Made by a program: the position numbers and the translations under genes. The notes beneath the pieces are model-generated. The model did no database searches. It was not told where the DNA came from and saw only the letters and a program-made list of their open reading frames with translations. Positions 22,756-31,024 of a DNA stretch of 43,814 bases are shown here, piece by piece. The DNA comes from Bacillota bacterium. Lineage in GTDB: Bacteria > Bacillota > Sulfobacillia > JAJYWN01. How positions within the stretch are numbered: position 1 is the first letter of the stretch; the number at the start of each line of letters is the position of its first letter. The stretch is taken from the NCBI GenBank assembly GCA_021791495.1, contig JAJYWN010000002.1, forward strand, positions 1 to 43,814. The letters are read 5' to 3'.

Positions 22756-22895
22756 GGCCTGATTCTCCCTGATCCGCCGTTAGAGATTGTGCGGGCAGGC
22801 GCAGTAAATGACAAAATAGGAGAAACGGCAATAGTTGTAGAATGGGAAAGAACCGTAATCGAATCGGCGGTTCAGAAATCGAGGAGGTCTGCCCC

Positions 22896-23603
22896 GTGGC
22901 CGTTGCCCGAAAGTCTTTCGACCAGGAACTGAAGACTTTGGAGGATATGGTCCTTTCCCTCGCCAGCATAACGGGGGAGGCGGTCGCCGATTCCGTCGAG
23001 GCGCTGAAGCGGCGCGAAATGAAACTGGTCCGCAAGGTCCACGACTCCGAAGCCCAGACCGACAGCCTACGACATCAGATCGAAAGCAAGTGCGTCGGCC
23101 TTCTGGCTACGCAGCAGCCCATGGCGGGCGACCTGCGACGCATCCTCGCCGCTCTAGTCATCAGCATCGACCTGGAGCGCATGGCCGACCACGCCGAGGG
23201 CGTGGCTTCCGCCGCCGAGCGGATGATGGTGCAGCCGCCGTTGAAACCCTTGGTCGACATCCCGCGGATGGCCGAGATCGTTCAGGACATGTTGAGGAAG
23301 GCCATGGACGCTTTCGTGCGGCGCGACGCCCATCTGGCGGCTGATTTTACTAAAGAGGACGATGAAGTAGACAGCCTCCGCTCACAGGTCTTCCGCGAGC
23401 TCTTGACTTACATGATCGAGGACCCGCGTAACATTTCGCGAGCGCTGGAACTAATTCTGGTTACGCAGCACCTGGAGCGGATGGGGGACCACGCCACCAA
23501 CCTGGGTGAGCGAGTAGTCTACATGATCACCGGGGAGCTGTCCGACCTGAACGTTTCTGAACGGGAACGGGTGGGGCAGCCGGGGCAGTCCGGCCGGGAC
23601 TGA
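22896..23603 (+). CDS. phoU: Phosphate signalling protein PhoU
   Basis: GTG 22896 is chosen because GAGGAGG at 22881-22887 lies 8 bases upstream; the open frame extends to 22842 without a better site. This gives 235 residues, the usual PhoU length. Two three-helix PhoU repeats are visible: SFDQELKTLEDMVLSLASI with LRRILAALVISIDLERMADHAEGVA, and the second copy with ISRALELILVTQHLERMGDHATNLGERVVYM (in parts). The ERMADHA and ERMGDHATN motifs are the metal-binding signatures. It links Pst transport state to the PhoR-like kinase. It is the last gene of the pst cluster. Confidence 0.96.
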   Translation: MAVARKSFDQELKTLEDMVLSLASITGEAVADSVEALKRREMKLVRKVHDSEAQTDSLRHQIESKCVGLLATQQPMAGDLRRILAALVISIDLERMADHAEGVASAAERMMVQPPLKPLVDIPRMAEIVQDMLRKAMDAFVRRDAHLAADFTKEDDEVDSLRSQVFRELLTYMIEDPRNISRALELILVTQHLERMGDHATNLGERVVYMITGELSDLNVSERERVGQPGQSGRD

Positions 23604-24681: not shown

Positions 24682-25425
24682 CTATTGTCTCCAGTCCATT
24701 CTGACCGTGGAAATGTACCCCAGAACTATGGAGCTAATTGCCAACATGGCTGCGTCATGAAGTGGAAAGACGCCGCTGAATAGAACCGTTCGCAAGCCAT
24801 GTGCCGCATAGGTTAGAGGCATGATTGAGCTGAGGTATGCCAACGCGGGGGCGAGTGTTTCGGTCGGGACAAACACCGGGGACAGCAACAAAGTGACACC
24901 CAACACGAAGTTGGTCAGAAGCGCTGCCACACTCGGATTTGGCGAGAACACTCCAATCGCTGCCCCTACACCCGTCATAGAAAGCATGGAAAGCAGGGCG
25001 ATGACGAAGAACCCCAGTGACAAGTGGAAGTGTACATCGTAGAGTTGGGAGCCTGCAATAAGCACGACTAACACGGAAGGCAGTGACGAGAGTGCCGCGA
25101 TGACAAGTACCGATGAACTAAGCATCCACCGTTGGACGGGAAGAGCACCGTAGTATTCCACCTCGTTATTAACCTTGGCCCAAGAAAGACGTTCAGCCAA
25201 TGTGGTTACGGGACCAAAGACCAAAGAGAGCACTGCATTACCCGTGACCAGATAGGCGATTCTGGAAGAGTCATATATACCTGCCAACTTGAAGAAGTAC
25301 ATCATGATCACCGGAAACAAAGCACTCATCAGTAGGGCCGGTACCCAAAGGCGCCTGTACATTGCAAGCCTTATTCTAACAAGAACCGAAAGTTGGGTAA
25401 CGGTATTGTAATTATGCACTTTCAT
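24682..25425 (-). CDS. ABC-2 type transporter permease of the RiPP island
   Basis: The 247-residue protein starts at ATG 25425, overlapping the ATPase gene by 14 bases. It has about six hydrophobic segments (LWVPALLMSALFPVIMMYFF, IAYLVTGNAVLSLVFGPVTTL, MLSSSVLVIAALSSLPSVLVVLI in part, and others). The pattern fits ABC-2 exporters (drug, bacteriocin or lipid export and self-immunity). A cytosolic loop with EYYGALPVQRWM is the usual coupling region. With the adjacent ATPase it would form a homodimeric channel. In this cluster it most likely exports the mature peptide or protects the producer. Codon choice and base composition look less GC-rich than in the pst or mol genes. Confidence 0.85.
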   Translation of the reverse strand: MKVHNYNTVTQLSVLVRIRLAMYRRLWVPALLMSALFPVIMMYFFKLAGIYDSSRIAYLVTGNAVLSLVFGPVTTLAERLSWAKVNNEVEYYGALPVQRWMLSSSVLVIAALSSLPSVLVVLIAGSQLYDVHFHLSLGFFVIALLSMLSMTGVGAAIGVFSPNPSVAALLTNFVLGVTLLLSPVFVPTETLAPALAYLSSIMPLTYAAHGLRTVLFSGVFPLHDAAMLAISSIVLGYISTVRMDWRQ

Positions 25426-26332
25426 CCCTCATCTTGGCATAGACGTCTTGAAGGGTGCCCGTTGATATGGTTAGTGCCTGGATTGATTCAGGGGGTACGA
25501 CGTCAGAAAGAGTCGCAAGGAAACGGGATAGATTCGCTCTGGCTATTTGGATCTGTAACCTGTCTTCACTTACCCTAGTCGCATCCCAAGGAAGAGTCAC
25601 CGACAGGTTTGGTGCCGTCGACGCCAAGGTTACTATCATGGTATCTCCTAACCGCGCCCGCAGTTCTGTTGGTGTCCCAATTGCAGTAACCCTGCCATCG
25701 TTTATGAACCCAACTCTGTCCAAGACTTGCTCAGCCTCTAACACGTCGTGGGTTACCAGGATGACCGTGGTACCGAATTCATGATTTCTCCTCCTAATCT
25801 CATCCCAAAGTCGACGTCTGTTTGTAATGTCCAGATGAGTTGTCGGTTCATCCAGGATTAGCAGGGGACGATAACCCACAAGTGCAGCGCACACTCCTAC
25901 GAGCCTTCGAGAACCACCCGACAGGGCTGAGAATAGCTTTGATGCCTGCTTGGTTAAGCCGAATAGGTCCATTAGCTCATTGGTGCCTTGCCTGGCCAGT
26001 GCAGGCGGTATACCCCTGAGAAGCGCGGTGTATTCAATGCATTCACTTACCTTCAGGTCAGAAAAGGGTGTGGGATTCTGAGAGAGATAGGCTGAGACTT
26101 TGGAAGGGACATCCCTCTGAGCCAAGATGTCATGCCCGTGTATTGTGATCGAACCACTGTCGGGCTTAAGAAGCCCGAGTAGGAGCTTGACAAACGTCGT
26201 CTTTCCTGCGCCGTTGGGGCCAAGAAGGCCAAACACCTCTCCTTGCCTGACCGAGAGAGTAACAGAGTCTATCGCCTTGACACCTGTCAAGTACGACTTC
26301 GATAGATCCCCGGTAGCTATGGTGTCTGTCAT
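25412..26332 (-). CDS. ABC transporter ATP-binding protein of the RiPP island
   Basis: The 306-residue protein from ATG 26332 has Walker A GPNGAGKTT, signature ALSGGSRRLVGV, Walker B LLILDEPTTHLD and switch His in LVTHDVLEAEQ. This places it in the multidrug/bacteriocin exporter group (CcmA/DRA-like). The Q-loop is YLSQNPTPFSDLKV. After about residue 220 there is a C-terminal extension (IVTLASTAPNLSVTLPWDATRVSEDRLQI in parts), as in BcrA/NodI-type ATPases. The signature has SGGSRR rather than the common SGGQ/MRQR. It is coupled to the permease and begins 14 bases after the GNAT stop in the direction of transcription. Confidence 0.92.
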   Translation of the reverse strand: MTDTIATGDLSKSYLTGVKAIDSVTLSVRQGEVFGLLGPNGAGKTTFVKLLLGLLKPDSGSITIHGHDILAQRDVPSKVSAYLSQNPTPFSDLKVSECIEYTALLRGIPPALARQGTNELMDLFGLTKQASKLFSALSGGSRRLVGVCAALVGYRPLLILDEPTTHLDITNRRRLWDEIRRRNHEFGTTVILVTHDVLEAEQVLDRVGFINDGRVTAIGTPTELRARLGDTMIVTLASTAPNLSVTLPWDATRVSEDRLQIQIARANLSRFLATLSDVVPPESIQALTISTGTLQDVYAKMRDESA

Positions 26333-26346
26333 TTACTGCCCCCCGG

Positions 26347-27237
26347 CTAGAGAGAATAGACCTTGTACTTCAGCAACGGGACCGCGCCGTACCTACAAGC
26401 CACTCGGGTTGCCACCAGGTTTCGCTCGTCGATGTCTACCAGTACTCGGCCGTCCACTGCAGCTGCTTCAAGGGCTGACGCAATCAGGAGTTTCGTTACC
26501 CATGTTCCTCGAAAAGGCTTTCGGACTCCGACTCCACATAAGATCCCTTCGTACGGCGAGAAGTTGAAGAAGCCAGCGGCTGTATCATTTACGAAGAGGA
26601 CTCTCAAAGTCCCTGGTGCTGCATCATCAAAGTCACTGGCTTTCATCGGCACGAAATTGGGTGCGTCCTGGATGGTTTCATTGTAGACCTCTATAAAGAG
26701 GTCAATGGGCACATCGGGGACTTGGTCGATATGCCATCCCCCGCCAAGTTGATCGTCAAGGGAGCAAGGTGAGATAGCCAATTCCACCATGCTACGTTGG
26801 GCAATGTGTCTGAGGGAGAACCCGGCCTTGACTAAGTCATCTCCAAACCACGGGCCATCACGCATGGTGAGGGGGTGAAAAGACTGGCGAAACCCGTCCT
26901 CCCGTGCAGGATCGACAATTGTGATAAGCCATGCCTTCGGACGTGGGCTAATCTGAGCGATGGTCTCCTCCAGAAACTGTCGTATAGCAGGCAATTCCTG
27001 CACTAATTGGGCGCGGCTAGTTGATACAGGTCCCAGGATCAGCCTTACACCAGGTCTGGCCTCCAGCAGTCCCAAAAGTGCCCCCGGGGTTCCCGCCTCA
27101 AATACCCGGCAGCGCCCTTCATGTGCCGCCTTGCCCAAAGCCTTGATTCCCGCGAGTGAGAGAAGTGGATACGAAGATCCCATGGATGACAGGAGTCTTT
27201 CCTCTACGCCCTCGCTCCATTCGACCTCTTGCACCAA
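26347..27237 (-). CDS. Tandem-GNAT-like protein of the RiPP island
   Basis: TTG 27237 is preferred: AGAGGAGAG at 27252-27244 lies 8 bases upstream, whereas a TTG at 27255 precedes that site. GTG 27234 is also possible. The product is about 296 residues. The C-terminal third is a GNAT fold: GFFNFSPYEGILCGVGVRKPFRGTWVTKLLIASAL, in parts, then VLVDIDERNLVATRVACRYGAVPL. The acetyl-CoA loop is degenerate (RKPFRGTWVTK instead of QxxGxG/A). The N-terminal half ends WFGDDLVKAGFSLRHIAQRSMVEL and looks like a second, weaker GNAT repeat. It lies between the radical SAM gene and the transporter. It may acylate the peptide or confer immunity; this is inference. Confidence 0.75.
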   Translation of the reverse strand: MVQEVEWSEGVEERLLSSMGSSYPLLSLAGIKALGKAAHEGRCRVFEAGTPGALLGLLEARPGVRLILGPVSTSRAQLVQELPAIRQFLEETIAQISPRPKAWLITIVDPAREDGFRQSFHPLTMRDGPWFGDDLVKAGFSLRHIAQRSMVELAISPCSLDDQLGGGWHIDQVPDVPIDLFIEVYNETIQDAPNFVPMKASDFDDAAPGTLRVLFVNDTAAGFFNFSPYEGILCGVGVRKPFRGTWVTKLLIASALEAAAVDGRVLVDIDERNLVATRVACRYGAVPLLKYKVYSL

Positions 27238-27265
27238 GGAAATCTCTCCTCTCAACCTTTCTGCG

Positions 27266-28648
27266 CTAGGTAAGGCGCGTTCTCTTCTGTCTCACGTTGT
27301 GGCACCGCGGGTCGGGTGCCCAAGCTGTCCCAGTCGCTTTGATCGAGTCCCTTAGGCATCTGCCCCGACGCGTGCATTCGTCGAAGGTTGCGCAATCAAA
27401 ACAGGCAGTCCCAAGATACTTCTCTCTTGGAGGCTGGACCAGCTCCATCATGGTGTCACTTTGCCACAGTGAGATCAGAGACTGCTCAGCAAGGTTTCCA
27501 ATCCGGAAGAAATCCAAAGGTATGGACTCGCAGAAGCCCACATCTGCGTTGGGGTAAATGACTAGACTCTCTCGGCCGGCCGTGCAGCGGGCCCTCGACA
27601 CGAAAGCCTTTTCGCGTTCAATGTCCGACAACTCGGTGTGGTCTGCCCGGGCGTTAAGCCTGACCTCGGCGTCTGGATGTTTGTCTTGAAGGCCTTTTAC
27701 GATGTGTTCTGCTCTACGTCTCTCCTCGGGAGAAATGAAAAGCTCGTCAGAATGCCTATACAAGGATCTGCCGTAAGAGGTGAAGATCACTTTGCCAGTC
27801 CCTGCAGAGATCATTGCCTCTCCCAGTTCTGGGAGGTGACCGATGTTGTAGGGAGTCAGGACGGTTACAGTCTTAACCCGTATCCCTAAAGATGATGCTA
27901 GTTCGACTTGGTCTCTGATGGCCTTCCCATGATCCTGGAAACCGAGCATGTACTGACTGTACTGTCCATCCAGTGAATCAACGCTGAACTGAATCTGCCT
28001 CAGGCCGATCTCGGACAGTCTCTCGAGAACACGTCTACCAAGGATTGACTTGGTCGAAGTCTGGACGTGAATTCCCCGACACAGGAACGCGTCAATAACC
28101 TCGATGATATCCTTCCTTGCAAACGGGTCACCGCCGCTCAATTGCATACCGACACAGCCAGACTCAGCGCAGTCCTGGGCAATCTTGTCGATCTGCGGCA
28201 GATCCAGTTCGATGTGACCACCGATTCTGCGTTCCGCGTAACAATACTTGCAGTTGAATGCACACCTGAAGGTGGTCACATATACAAAAGAAGCAGGGTT
28301 TGCCAAACGCACCGGAATGTGAGGTGTAACGGGCTGAAAGACGAATGAGGTGGGGTCAATGGGGAGACGTTTGAACCATGAAAGCCGTTGGTCGAGAGGT
28401 GAAACCAAAACACCTTTATTGTCGGAAGTCAGGGTCGACAAGAAGCTGAGAGTCTCCTCAGCAGGCAAATCCGTCAGGAAGCACAGCTGGGAGGCAACTT
28501 CCGCATCGGTGGTGGGCTTCTGGTAGAGGCTCAGGGCTATTGCCCTCATGGGGTCAATGTACTCCACCACCCCTTCCTCAACGTCTATTACAACTACTTG
28601 GTCTCCATCACGTCTTAACCTGATCCAAGACCCCAATACACGCTGCAC
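27266..28648 (-). CDS. Radical SAM/SPASM peptide maturase with PqqD-like N-terminal domain
   Basis: GTG 28648 follows AGAGGTG by 10 bases and gives 460 residues; a TTG further up at 28729 has no ribosome site. Residues about 5-80 look like a PqqD-type RiPP recognition element: VVVIDVEEGVVEYIDPMRA, TTDAEVASQL, EETLSFLSTL. The radical SAM core starts at Ala119 with CAFNCKYC (Cys129, 133, 136), which binds the [4Fe-4S] cluster, then QLSGGDPFARKDI. The C-terminal SPASM-like region has seven cysteines, in RARC, GFC, TACFDC, DEC, GRC and PRC, for auxiliary clusters. Enzymes built this way form thioether or carbon crosslinks on peptides. The 49-residue peptide just upstream is the obvious substrate. 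Confidence 0.9.
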   Translation of the reverse strand: MQRVLGSWIRLRRDGDQVVVIDVEEGVVEYIDPMRAIALSLYQKPTTDAEVASQLCFLTDLPAEETLSFLSTLTSDNKGVLVSPLDQRLSWFKRLPIDPTSFVFQPVTPHIPVRLANPASFVYVTTFRCAFNCKYCYAERRIGGHIELDLPQIDKIAQDCAESGCVGMQLSGGDPFARKDIIEVIDAFLCRGIHVQTSTKSILGRRVLERLSEIGLRQIQFSVDSLDGQYSQYMLGFQDHGKAIRDQVELASSLGIRVKTVTVLTPYNIGHLPELGEAMISAGTGKVIFTSYGRSLYRHSDELFISPEERRRAEHIVKGLQDKHPDAEVRLNARADHTELSDIEREKAFVSRARCTAGRESLVIYPNADVGFCESIPLDFFRIGNLAEQSLISLWQSDTMMELVQPPREKYLGTACFDCATFDECTRRGRCLRDSIKATGTAWAPDPRCHNVRQKRTRLT

Positions 28649-28754
28649 AGCTTCTTCACCTCTTGGCCGGATTGAGTCGGGACAGAGGGTGTCTGAACAC
28701 GACCGGCTTCGACTCGTTCGACTCAACAACTGGCAACTGCTACCTTAGTGTGGG

Positions 28755-28802
28755 AAAAGGCCCCTTCCGCGCTAGGCGGGGACATCACACCCGAAAGGGC
28801 CT
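28755..28802 (-). terminator. Attenuator-like hairpin between precursor and maturase genes
   Basis: On the minus strand AGGCCCTTTC (28802-28793) pairs with the complementary arm at 28768-28758 in a roughly 10-bp stem with one wobble pair, followed by TTTT. Placed 13 bases after the precursor stop, it would let precursor mRNA exceed enzyme mRNA, as is common in peptide clusters. Confidence 0.6.
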
Positions 28803-28814
28803 CGGTCACGTAGA

Positions 28815-28964
28815 CTAGTTTTCGCCCTTGCCCCCGTTGAGGCAGGAATCACCACACCCAGGCTGGCATCCACCAAAACAGGAATGGTTCCTAACCGAGC
28901 AGGACATAGCCTCCTGCAAATGGTAGGTTCTCATCAACTCCTTCAGGACCAGGAGTTCACTCAT
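28815..28964 (-). CDS. Putative RiPP precursor peptide, 49 residues, C-x3-C repeats
   Basis: ATG 28964 is 7 bases after a near-perfect AAAGGAGGT (28980-28972). The frame is open to a GTG at 29024, but that start lacks a ribosome site. The leader (about 1-20, MSELLVLKELMRTYHLQEAM) is helical and acidic. The core carries Cys22, 29, 33, 37 and 41, the last four in CFGGCQPGCGDSC, and ends LNGGKGEN. The exact three-residue spacing, small residues between cysteines and lack of a signal peptide are typical of thioether-bridged peptides such as sactipeptides and ranthipeptides. It also recalls the Cys-every-fourth-residue peptides known elsewhere. The gene directly precedes the radical SAM maturase. 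I could not assign it to a named class. Confidence 0.8.
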   Translation of the reverse strand: MSELLVLKELMRTYHLQEAMSCSVRNHSCFGGCQPGCGDSCLNGGKGEN

Positions 28965-29530
28965 TCGCAATACCTCCTTTCGCATGGCTTCCTTCAGATT
29001 GGGACATGGAGACTCGGTCGCCACACCCGACTGCAGACACCTCTCTGCCCCTTATCAAAAGATACCAGAAATTACGAATGTTTCCTTTTAACTTCAGATT
29101 AGTGATAACAAAAAGTTAACATTAGGTGCAGCCCATAACTCCTTAAGCTTTGATTTACATCACTGGCTCGGATACCATTGTCGCTTAACCTCAGCCCGGG
29201 CTGATGCAACATTTCTGGGATGACCGATACATGAACGGTTTCTCCTTAGGCATTGAGTGTTCCGCATCAGGGTGCCTCGCTGCTTCCATCGTCCATCGGG
29301 TTAGAAGTAGTTGCGTCGCCAGGTCTTCACCAGACACGTCTCGTTTCTTGGTCCTTCCTGCGTCGTCAGAGCCAGTTCTGGCCCTTCCTGGGGGTTCAGG
29401 ACTCGCCGCGGCCAGCCCAACGAGCTGAAGCCGTTTTCTGTTTACCATGACCTCCGACAATGCTAACTGGAGCGAGTGGGGCAGTATGGCTCGACATCCC
29501 AGTGTGCTACTTTGGACGACAGGAGTGCCA
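28965..29530. other. AT-rich leader of the precursor gene and non-coding flank
   Basis: Bases 29041-29160 are markedly AT-rich against their surroundings and probably hold the precursor promoter. TGGTATCTT (about 29067-29059 on the minus strand) resembles an extended -10 but has no matching -35. A perfect 14-bp palindrome TCAGCCCGGGCTGA lies at 29191-29204. The rest to 29530 has open frames on both strands but none with a ribosome site or a recognisable protein. Confidence 0.4.
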
Positions 29531-29906
29531 TAGCTACGGAACGCGCAGAAGACCGGAGACATCCCTCATGGAGAGCTGCGGAAACTGTTTATGCAGGTGC
29601 TGAGGCTATGCCAAAAGGCCGGCCTGAAACGTGGATTATCGAAGAGAAGGCATCCAGCTGTAACCAAAGTGGTGCCCCCTTCAACGCCAGTTCTCCGTCA
29701 GGACCGCCCTACGGACCGAGCCGGGAGTCAGCGGTTTTCTGGGATACGGCCAAATCAGGAATTCTGGTGTGCAGTTCAGCGGAGTTGACGAAGATGGACC
29801 CCAGGACTCCGCTGAAGCGGGAGCCCACTACTCGGAACTCATTGAGCACGAGGTCGCAGACGCGTTATCCCGCGCTGAGGTCTGTGATGCACAGCTATGC
29901 GGCTAG
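29531..29906 (+). pseudogene. Probable decayed IS1182-type transposase fragment
   Basis: Two segments in different frames resemble parts of DUF772/IS1182-type transposases. Around 29560-29620 one frame reads PHGELRKLFMQVLRLCQKAGL, like the FVQVLRLCREAGL helix. Around 29826-29906 another reads YSELIEHEVADALSRAEVCD and then AQLCG, like the ELLxRAEAVDAEED region. Stops and frame changes separate them, and their spacing exceeds that of an intact enzyme. No terminal inverted repeats were found. The assignment is from memory of the family and is tentative. Confidence 0.35.
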
Positions 29907-30013
29907 CAGCATTCCCGTCACCTTCCGGCACCCATGTCGTTTGCGAGAACAAGGAGGTGGAGGCCGCCTCCGAGAATCCTGGGGCAGTTCATGGATATCG
30001 GAGGAGAACCCTT

Positions 30014-31024
30014 TTGATTAGTGGTCCCGGTTCGACTACATCCAACCTTGCCGCGCCCACCCTAGCCGACGTCTTGGCCGCCCGCCAGATCGTCGACAAG
30101 TACCTGCGCCGCACGCCTTTCCTGCACCCCATGGCCCTGGGTCAGGCGCTCGGGCTCGATGTCTATCTAAAGTGCGAGAACATGCAGCCCACCGGCGCTT
30201 TCAAGGTACGAGGAGGCGTTAACCTCTTCGCGCGCTCGCCCCGGGCCGAACTGGAGCGCGGCGTGGTGACCGCTTCCACCGGCAACCACGGCCAATCCAT
30301 CGCCTTCGCCGGCCGGGCGTTCGGTATCCCGGTCATCATCTATGCTCCGGAAAAGGCCAACACCTTCAAGATCAAGGCCATGCAGAACCTGGGCGCCACC
30401 GTGGTTCAGGAAGGGGCCACCTATGACGATTCGGTCGCTAACGGCCAGGCCCGGGCGCGCCGCGAAGGCCAGCGTTACGTCAGCGCCAGCGACGAGCCGC
30501 TGCTCATAGCCGGCGTCGCCACGGCCTACCTGGAGATGCTGGAAGAGGAACCGGCGCTGGACACTTTCATCGTCCCCTTGGGCGGTGGCAGCAACGCCTG
30601 CGGCGCCTGCATCGTGGCCAAGACCATCAACCCGCGGGCCCGCGTCATCGCGGTGCAGGCCGCCGGCGCCCCCGCCTTCTACAACTCCTTCAGAGCCGGA
30701 CACGTCACCAGTACAGAAACCGTGAACACCTTCGCCGATGGTTTGGCGACCAGGGCGGCCTATGACCTTCCCTTCGGCATCCTCAGCAGGATGCTGGATG
30801 ATGTTATCTTGGTTAGTGATGATGAGATCGCGGAAGCCATCGCCCTCCTCATGGACACCACCCACCAACTGGCGGAAGGGGCGGGAGCGGCCCCGGTGGC
30901 GGCGGCACGCAAGCTTGCGCCACAGTTGAAGGGCCGCAAGGTCGGGCTGATGCTGTCTGGCGGTAATGTGACCCTGGACATCGTCGCGCGAGCCTTGAGG
31001 ACAAGGGGGGCAGATCGCCGTTGA
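30014..31024 (+). CDS. PLP-dependent threonine dehydratase-like ammonia-lyase
   Basis: TTG 30014 lies 7 bases after GGAGGAG (30000-30006) and gives 336 residues; upstream in-frame sequence is unlike coding. The fold-type II PLP enzyme starts LAARQIVDKYLRRTPFLHP. The lysine that binds PLP is in CENMQPTGAFKVRGG, and the phosphate-binding loop is VPLGGGSNACGA. ASTGNHGQSIAFAGRAFGIP is the conserved Asn-Gly-His region. The length fits catabolic threonine/serine dehydratases or hydroxyaspartate ammonia-lyases; no ACT regulatory domain is present. The substrate is uncertain. Its TGA overlaps the next start (TTGA), linking it to the sensor operon, which is unusual. Confidence 0.88.
   Translation: MISGPGSTTSNLAAPTLADVLAARQIVDKYLRRTPFLHPMALGQALGLDVYLKCENMQPTGAFKVRGGVNLFARSPRAELERGVVTASTGNHGQSIAFAGRAFGIPVIIYAPEKANTFKIKAMQNLGATVVQEGATYDDSVANGQARARREGQRYVSASDEPLLIAGVATAYLEMLEEEPALDTFIVPLGGGSNACGACIVAKTINPRARVIAVQAAGAPAFYNSFRAGHVTSTETVNTFADGLATRAAYDLPFGILSRMLDDVILVSDDEIAEAIALLMDTTHQLAEGAGAAPVAAARKLAPQLKGRKVGLMLSGGNVTLDIVARALRTRGADRR

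What the first reader, a model, noticed from the sequence alone, without database searches (positions are those of the whole stretch)
24682..28964. Compact RiPP island: C-x3-C precursor, RRE-radical SAM/SPASM maturase, tandem GNAT-like protein and ABC exporter
Seen: a 49-codon frame with an ideal ribosome site; cysteines at 22, 29, 33, 37 and 41; an attenuator-like hairpin; then a radical SAM enzyme with CxxxCxxC, a PqqD-like N-terminus and a 7-cysteine SPASM-like tail; a GNAT-like gene; and an ATPase and permease, all on one strand. Known: radical SAM/SPASM enzymes with recognition domains crosslink peptides (AlbA, SCIFF and freyrasin maturases). Inference: the last four cysteines, each separated by exactly three residues, form thioether or related crosslinks, and the GNAT-like protein adds acylation or immunity. 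I know of no characterised product with this core and gene set.
Basis: partly seen in the sequence, partly recalled or inferred. Interest (0 to 1): 0.85.

Follow-up and report, generated by a model that had tools for sequence, protein, structure and literature searches.

The report
Cysteine-repeat peptide with radical-SAM maturation operon
A small operon, probably acquired from elsewhere, encodes a short cysteine-rich peptide, the radical enzyme that most likely cross-links it, and its exporter; relatives in Paenibacillus and other phyla show that the peptide-enzyme pair belongs to a widespread family that matches no named maturase family and whose chemistry is untested.

Summary
A 49-aa precursor with cysteines at 22, 29, 33, 37 and 41 and a strong ribosome site lies directly upstream of an RRE/radical-SAM/SPASM enzyme with 3+7 invariant cluster cysteines, a weakly GNAT-like gene, and a DrrAB-type ABC ATPase and permease, in a low-GC island (50-55% against 60-65%). 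The RiPP reading is well supported. The predicted maturase fold matches the peptide maturases SuiB and SkfB over its full length, RRE included. Relatives in four Paenibacillus genomes each carry two upstream precursors with Cx2-3C cores. Across 51 homologous loci, 26 have such a peptide upstream on the same strand (0 on the opposite strand, 1.3% in shuffles, 4/50 downstream). The shared unit is C-x-x-[G/S/A]; Gly precedes the next Cys in 38 of 67 cases. The pair matches no curated NCBIfam maturase or precursor, whereas the same genome's separate SCIFF pair is recognised above cut-off. Not shown: the chemistry, the GNAT-like protein's role ('tandem GNAT' not established, no homologue found), any antimicrobial activity, or a real attenuator (hairpin no better than shuffles). 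Verdict: new variant of a known kind, an uncharacterised lineage of radical-SAM Cys-rich RiPPs.

The parts
28815..28964 (-). precursor peptide, 49 aa: leader about 1-21 (MSELLVLKELMRTYHLQEAMS), Cys core 22-45 (CSVRNHSCFGGCQPGCGDSCLNGG)
   Evidence: unique Cys spacing in window; N-terminus aligned to Paenibacillus precursors (MSEL..LK.L); top-ranked of 407 window ORFs with the Paenibacillus precursor profile, but weak (E 0.11)
28973..28980 (-). ribosome-binding site AAAGGAGG of the precursor
28758..28802 (-). hairpin followed by short U run between precursor and maturase (possible partial terminator)
   Evidence: energy not better than shuffles (z -0.10)
27266..28648 (-). radical SAM maturase, GTG start preferred (TTG 28729 is the first start in frame); residue numbers below count from the TTG
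28397..28642 (-). RRE (PqqD-like leader-binding domain), residues 30-111
   Evidence: topology and pLDDT; SuiB aligned from residue 29-30 and SkfB from 34
27776..28291 (-). radical SAM core, residues 147-318, CxxxCxxC at 156/160/163
27302..27586 (-). seven-cysteine SPASM domain, residues 382-476
26347..27237 (-). GNAT-like protein (C-terminal half weakly Acetyltransf_1); no homologue found; TTG 27237 or GTG 27234 start
25412..26332 (-). ABC transporter ATPase, DrrA-like
24682..25425 (-). ABC-2 permease, DrrB-like, overlaps the ATPase gene by 14 nt

Best explanation
This is a RiPP operon. The 49-aa peptide is translated from a strong ribosome site; its N-terminal half is the leader, bound by the RRE at the N-terminus of the maturase (inferred from fold). 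The radical SAM core cleaves SAM to a 5'-deoxyadenosyl radical and abstracts a hydrogen from a residue of the core; the thiolate of a core Cys, probably held at a SPASM cluster, captures the resulting radical and closes a thioether (inferred by analogy with AlbA, SkfB, CteB and PapB). Because the only feature kept between the cysteines across homologues is a small residue (Gly > Ser > Ala) just before the next Cys, the most likely product is a chain of small thioether rings within successive C-x-x-[G/S/A] units, with Gly/Ser/Ala carbons rather than Asp/Asn/Thr as acceptors. The two-gene ABC exporter moves the product out; it has no C39 peptidase domain, so the leader is probably cut by a protease outside the operon. 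The GNAT-like gene is a locus-specific accessory for acylation or self-protection. Shown: gene content, domain architecture, conserved cluster cysteines, conserved association with a Cx2-3C peptide. Inferred: leader binding, thioether chemistry, acceptor, export, role of the GNAT-like protein.
For: The maturase model (pLDDT 83.9) is closest to RiPP maturases over its full length including the RRE: SuiB and SkfB by Foldseek and VIA-align (Z 25-27), then PqqE and CteB. CxxxCxxC and all seven SPASM Cys are invariant in 30 homologues. Four Paenibacillus genomes and a P. peoriae plasmid carry two precursors immediately upstream of the homologous maturase with Cx2-3C cores. Neomarinimicrobiota L024 and Bacteroidota L029 and L039 have long Cx3C repeats. 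26 of 51 loci have an upstream same-strand Cx(2-3)Cx(2-3)C ORF, against 0 on the opposite strand, 1.3% in shuffles and 4/50 downstream; 74 of 129 Cys gaps are exactly 3. C-x-x-G/S/A unit: Gly 38, Ser 12, Ala 5 of 67. L025 shares the maturase + ABC ATPase + ABC-2 permease order. Low-GC island.
Against: No chemistry is demonstrated. Sequence similarity of the window precursor to the Paenibacillus precursors is weak (hhalign over 11 leader columns only; HMM E 0.11). About half of the homologous loci, including L023 and L027, show no such peptide in the 700-bp upstream scan, and the rhizobial and Peptococcaceae homologues have different short cores (CDSCTVCPCMICW, CDQC). The maturase gives no match above cut-off to any thioether-forming equivalog. 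The closest full-length fold by Foldseek, SuiB, makes a C-C bond, so the fold does not fix the bond type.
Confidence: 0.6

Rival explanations
1. Same RiPP operon, but the maturase makes something other than thioethers (carbon-carbon crosslink, epimerisation or desaturation) and the cysteines stay free, for disulfides or metal binding: the product would be a Cys-rich metal- or redox-active peptide.
For: The best full-length Foldseek match is SuiB (Lys-Trp C-C bond) and the sequence is no nearer to thioether-forming equivalogs than to PqqE, mycofactocin or GeoRSP maturases. No classical acceptor (Asp/Asn/Thr) is conserved between the Cys.
Against: Cys is the only strongly conserved residue type in the cores across phyla, and Cys-rich cores next to SPASM maturases are thioether substrates in the characterised cases I know of (own knowledge).
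Confidence: 0.22
2. A divergent member of the NCBIfam CXXX-repeat system (TIGR04115 maturase with TIGR04117/04118 peptides) or of SCIFF/ranthipeptides, i.e. an ordinary known family.
For: A Paenibacillus homologous precursor gives weak TIGR04118 (E 4e-4) and TIGR04117 (E 7e-4) matches, below their cut-offs.
Against: The window precursor matches neither. The TIGR04115 search lists five other places in this genome but not the window maturase, nor does TIGR04119. The genome's true SCIFF pair is recognised above cut-off elsewhere.
Confidence: 0.12
3. The peptide is not the substrate; the enzyme modifies another protein or small molecule and the short ORF is incidental or regulatory (leader peptide of an attenuator).
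For: A hairpin with a short U run follows the ORF; some homologous loci lack a recognised peptide.
Against: Unique Cys spacing in the window, strong ribosome site, conserved upstream association in other phyla at about 40 times the shuffled rate, RRE present; the hairpin is no stronger than shuffles.
Confidence: 0.06

Closest known systems
SuiB (streptide maturase) and SkfB (sporulation killing factor maturase)
   Same: N-terminal RRE, radical SAM core, C-terminal SPASM; full-length structural match (Z 25-27)
   Different: 15-17% identity; SuiB makes a Lys-Trp C-C bond and SkfB one Cys-S-Calpha bond; their precursors are not Cx3C repeats (own knowledge)
CteB/SCIFF and PapB/freyrasin (ranthipeptides)
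   Same: RRE-rSAM-SPASM enzyme beside a Cys-rich short precursor; PapA uses regular Cys-x3-Asp spacing (PMC9413430)
   Different: Window core has Cys-x3-Cys with only Gly/Ser/Ala conserved between, no Cys-x3-Asp repeat; no SCIFF or PapB model over cut-off; the same genome has a separate true SCIFF pair
NCBIfam CXXX-repeat systems (TIGR04115 maturase; TIGR04117/TIGR04118 precursors)
   Same: Cys-x-x-x repeat cores beside a radical SAM enzyme
   Different: Maturase not matched by TIGR04115 in this search; window precursor not matched; only the Paenibacillus relatives touch the precursor models weakly
Bacteroidales GG-leader rSAM RiPPs (TIGR04149)
   Same: Homologous maturases with Cys-rich cores, many Cx3C
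   Different: Double-Gly leader absent in the window and Paenibacillus precursors; the YxRSxxRHxD motif of the window's nearest relatives is absent there

Membership tests
Radical SAM (SPASM) RiPP system, general | radical SAM CxxxCxxC | tested here: met
   Pfam Radical_SAM 1.9e-21; invariant in 30 homologues
Radical SAM (SPASM) RiPP system, general | SPASM domain with seven cluster cysteines | tested here: met
   Pfam SPASM 3.6e-8; seven invariant Cys
Radical SAM (SPASM) RiPP system, general | RRE leader-recognition domain | tested here: met
   predicted strands + three helices, mostly pLDDT 86-90; SuiB and SkfB aligned from residues 30-34 on. Predicted fold only; leader binding not tested
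Radical SAM (SPASM) RiPP system, general | adjacent short precursor conserved with the maturase | tested here: met
   not in every homologous locus
Sactipeptide or ranthipeptide | Cys-S-to-carbon thioether (alpha, or beta/gamma) made by the rSAM enzyme | not testable with these tools
   needs co-expression and MS/MS
SCIFF (TIGR03973/TIGR03974) | precursor and maturase above the curated cut-offs | tested here: not met
   window precursor: no family at E<=1; maturase: TIGR03974 not among its best 25 families, the best of which score 78 bits or less, while the pair on contig 22 scores 64.4 (cut-off 50) and 440 (cut-off 425)
CXXX-repeat system (TIGR04115/04117/04118) | maturase over the TIGR04115 cut-off (350 bits) and precursor over the TIGR04117/04118 cut-offs | tested here: not met
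   window maturase not listed at E<=0.1; window precursor no match
TIGR04149 GG-leader precursors | double-glycine leader of the Bacteroidales type | tested here: not met
   no match for P0001; six other members of A8 match
GNAT acetyltransferase (Pfam PF00583) | score at or above the gathering cut-off (20.7 bits) | tested here: inconclusive
   18.0 bits for the C-terminal half, none for the N-half; the structure model failed (pLDDT 35)
ABC-2 type exporter (PF00005 + PF01061) | ATPase and ABC-2 permease over Pfam cut-offs | tested here: met
   100.9 and 50.3 bits

The most novel reading that the evidence does not exclude
The window belongs to an uncharacterised, cross-phylum family of RRE/rSAM/SPASM maturases whose substrates are runs of C-x-x-[G/S/A] units. 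The enzyme would join each Cys to the small residue three positions on (or to the next unit), giving a chain of four-residue rings: a crosslink pattern with Gly/Ser/Ala acceptors unlike freyrasin (Cys-x3-Asp) or SCIFF.
Probability: 0.35. Interest if true: 0.7.

Novelty: new variant of a known kind. Interest (0 to 1): 0.5.

Why it matters
It links scattered, unnamed maturase-peptide pairs from Bacillota, Bacteroidota, Fidelibacterota and others into one testable family with a simple substrate rule (C-x-x-[G/S/A] repeats). The Paenibacillus pairs come from culturable hosts and could reveal a thioether pattern with non-classical acceptors.

Tried and rejected
A close-relative scan of genome contigs with the maturase alone found nothing; an alignment reached 97 relatives. 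Among 60 taxonomic relatives only one distant hit (26%, L006), and 3 others in 398 phylum genomes. The GNAT-like protein found no relative in 154 class genomes, 249 phylum genomes, plasmids or viral contigs; its single-sequence AlphaFold model is unusable. The maturase found nothing in viral contigs. Attenuator: the hairpin exists but its energy is average for shuffles; no Rfam match in the window. SCIFF and CXXX-repeat membership rejected by curated models. Distribution in Paenibacillus is patchy: 2 of 75 genomes of the genus of L020 hold the maturase, which fits a mobile or frequently lost system. Papers: no description of this pair found in the held library; subscription papers are not held, including the 2011 J. 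Bacteriol. paper on rSAM families and target peptides, so prior description there cannot be excluded.
Full report
Observation. The five genes lie on the minus strand between PhoU (22842-23603) and a threonine-dehydratase-like gene (29897-31024). The precursor frame 28964-28815 encodes MSELLVLKELMRTYHLQEAMSCSVRNHSCFGGCQPGCGDSCLNGGKGEN, with AAAGGAGG 8 nt before its ATG. It is the only ORF of 130 aa or less in the 43.8-kb window with four Cys at x3 (or even x2-3) spacing; 60 dinucleotide shuffles of the window gave a mean of 0.0 strict and 0.12 loose. GC is 50-55% over about 25-30 kb against 60-65% in most of the window, so the operon looks imported (inference).

Maturase. Pfam finds Radical_SAM and SPASM. 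The best curated NCBIfam matches are GeoRSP, mycofactocin and PqqE maturases at 70-78 bits, against cut-offs of 265-400, so no named family fits. With 29 homologues an AlphaFold model reached pLDDT 83.9 and shows an RRE-like N-terminus (residues 30-111). Foldseek and VIA-align rank SuiB and SkfB highest among full-length matches, with PqqE close behind and CteB further down. CxxxCxxC and seven SPASM Cys are invariant across 30 homologues. The start is probably GTG 28648, not TTG 28729: a ribosome site precedes it, and confident order in the model begins at about residue 29.

Relatives. A scan with a three-row alignment found 97 relatives, 80 kept. In P. terrae, P. rhizophilus, Paenibacillus sp. 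BJ-4 and P. zanthoxyli, two short frames stand directly upstream of the maturase, with a shared leader (GLSKR.LL.ELI) and cores such as RCDVGCSASCTSCQPGCSSGG. The P. peoriae plasmid copy has the two peptides but a maturase broken by a frame change. The window precursor aligns with these at the N-terminus (MSEL..LK.L) and in the core, but the statistical support is weak: hhalign over 11 columns, and rank 1 of 407 window ORFs at E 0.11. Homology of the peptides therefore rests mainly on position and Cys pattern.

More distant loci repeat the pattern. Neomarinimicrobiota L024 has CAFSCSRACGASCSSGCYSGCDAASSCAQGCSSGCKSG; Bacteroidota L029 has CDAGCKRGCVPGCRPGCAPGC and L039 CIFSCESSCSSSCKDGC. Of 51 loci with enough upstream sequence, 26 have a same-strand upstream ORF with Cx(2-3)Cx(2-3)C, against none on the opposite strand, 1.3% in shuffles and 4 of 50 downstream; 74 of 129 successive Cys gaps are exactly three residues (a few listed frames look spurious, such as L086). 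The 51 loci are related to one another, so they are not 51 independent cases. Between Cys three apart, the last residue is Gly in 38, Ser in 12 and Ala in 5 of 67 cases, on a hand-picked set of cores. Some homologues depart: rhizobial plasmids end in CDSCTVCPCMICW, the Peptococcaceae locus has CDQC, and L023 and L027 showed no Cys-rich peptide directly upstream.

Tree. Forty-four maturases (quick IQ-TREE) place the window in a 37-row group (SH-aLRT 95) apart from the mycofactocin-like and haem-pathway rSAM rows; it is a long, deep branch with Paenibacillus nearest at 33% identity. Verified members of named RiPP families were not in this tree, so the family boundary is not settled.

Accessory genes. 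The GNAT-like protein has a sub-threshold Acetyltransf_1 match in its C-half only (18.0 bits, cut-off 20.7), nothing in its N-half, an unusable single-sequence model, and no relatives in 154 class and 249 phylum genomes, plasmids or viral contigs. The ATPase and permease are ordinary DrrAB-type. In L025 an ATPase, a permease and an M16 peptidase follow the maturase. The Paenibacillus loci have no such neighbours. So the conserved core is peptide plus maturase; the rest is local.

Known families. The genome has a genuine SCIFF pair on another contig (peptide 64.4 bits, cut-off 50; maturase 440, cut-off 425), which shows that the curated models work here and that the window system is separate. 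TIGR04115 (CXXX-repeat maturase) lists five other places in this genome but not the window enzyme. A Paenibacillus precursor touches TIGR04118/04117 weakly, below cut-off, so the CXXX idea is the nearest described concept. PapB/freyrasin uses Cys-x3-Asp units (PMC9413430); sacti- and ranthipeptide chemistry is reviewed in PMC11002830. Network-based mining has found other unexplained Cys motifs, such as Asp-Cys repeats (PMC9062424); the passages read there do not describe this one.

Mechanism. Leader binding by the RRE, radical formation on a core residue and thiolate capture is the standard route for this architecture. What is specific here is the absence of a conserved Asp/Asn/Thr acceptor and the presence of a small residue before each next Cys, which suggests thioethers to Gly/Ser/Ala carbons in four-residue units. 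This is inference; C-C bond formation or free, metal-binding thiols remain possible. Leader cleavage probably comes from outside the operon, since the exporter has no peptidase domain and no protease gene lies in it.

Verdict.

Noticed in passing
L105 (G000 contig 22), 4983-5138 and 3561-4955, minus strand: The same genome carries a true SCIFF ranthipeptide pair (six-Cys peptide plus maturase), recognised above curated cut-offs.
   Followed up: yes
L106 (G000 contig 47), 3438-4757: A further radical SAM/SPASM peptide-maturase-like gene nearest geopeptide and CefB models (below cut-off); no obvious Cys-rich precursor seen beside it.
   Followed up: partly
L016 (Paenibacillus peoriae plasmid NZ_CP011513.1), 6951-8837: Two precursors and a homologous maturase split by a frame change on a plasmid; intact copies exist in other Paenibacillus genomes.
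   Followed up: partly
L017 6560-9767 and L018 6535-9770 (rhizobial plasmids): Near-identical precursors ending CDSCTVCPCMICW followed by two radical SAM genes, distant relatives of the window maturase; looks like an undescribed RiPP system in rhizobia.
   Followed up: partly
L024 6723-6971 (Neomarinimicrobiota MAG): Precursor core with nine cysteines in almost perfect Cx3C repeats, the clearest example of the substrate rule.
   Followed up: partly
L028 3965-4927 and L023 8449-8976: A protein without Pfam match follows the maturase in the Peptococcaceae locus, and a similar-looking frame follows it in the archaeal-labelled MAG locus; possible alternative accessory (similarity judged by eye).
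   Followed up: no
window 29042-29896: About 850 bases without a convincing gene, AT-rich near 29050-29150, upstream of the precursor; probable promoter region or remains of an insertion.
   Followed up: no
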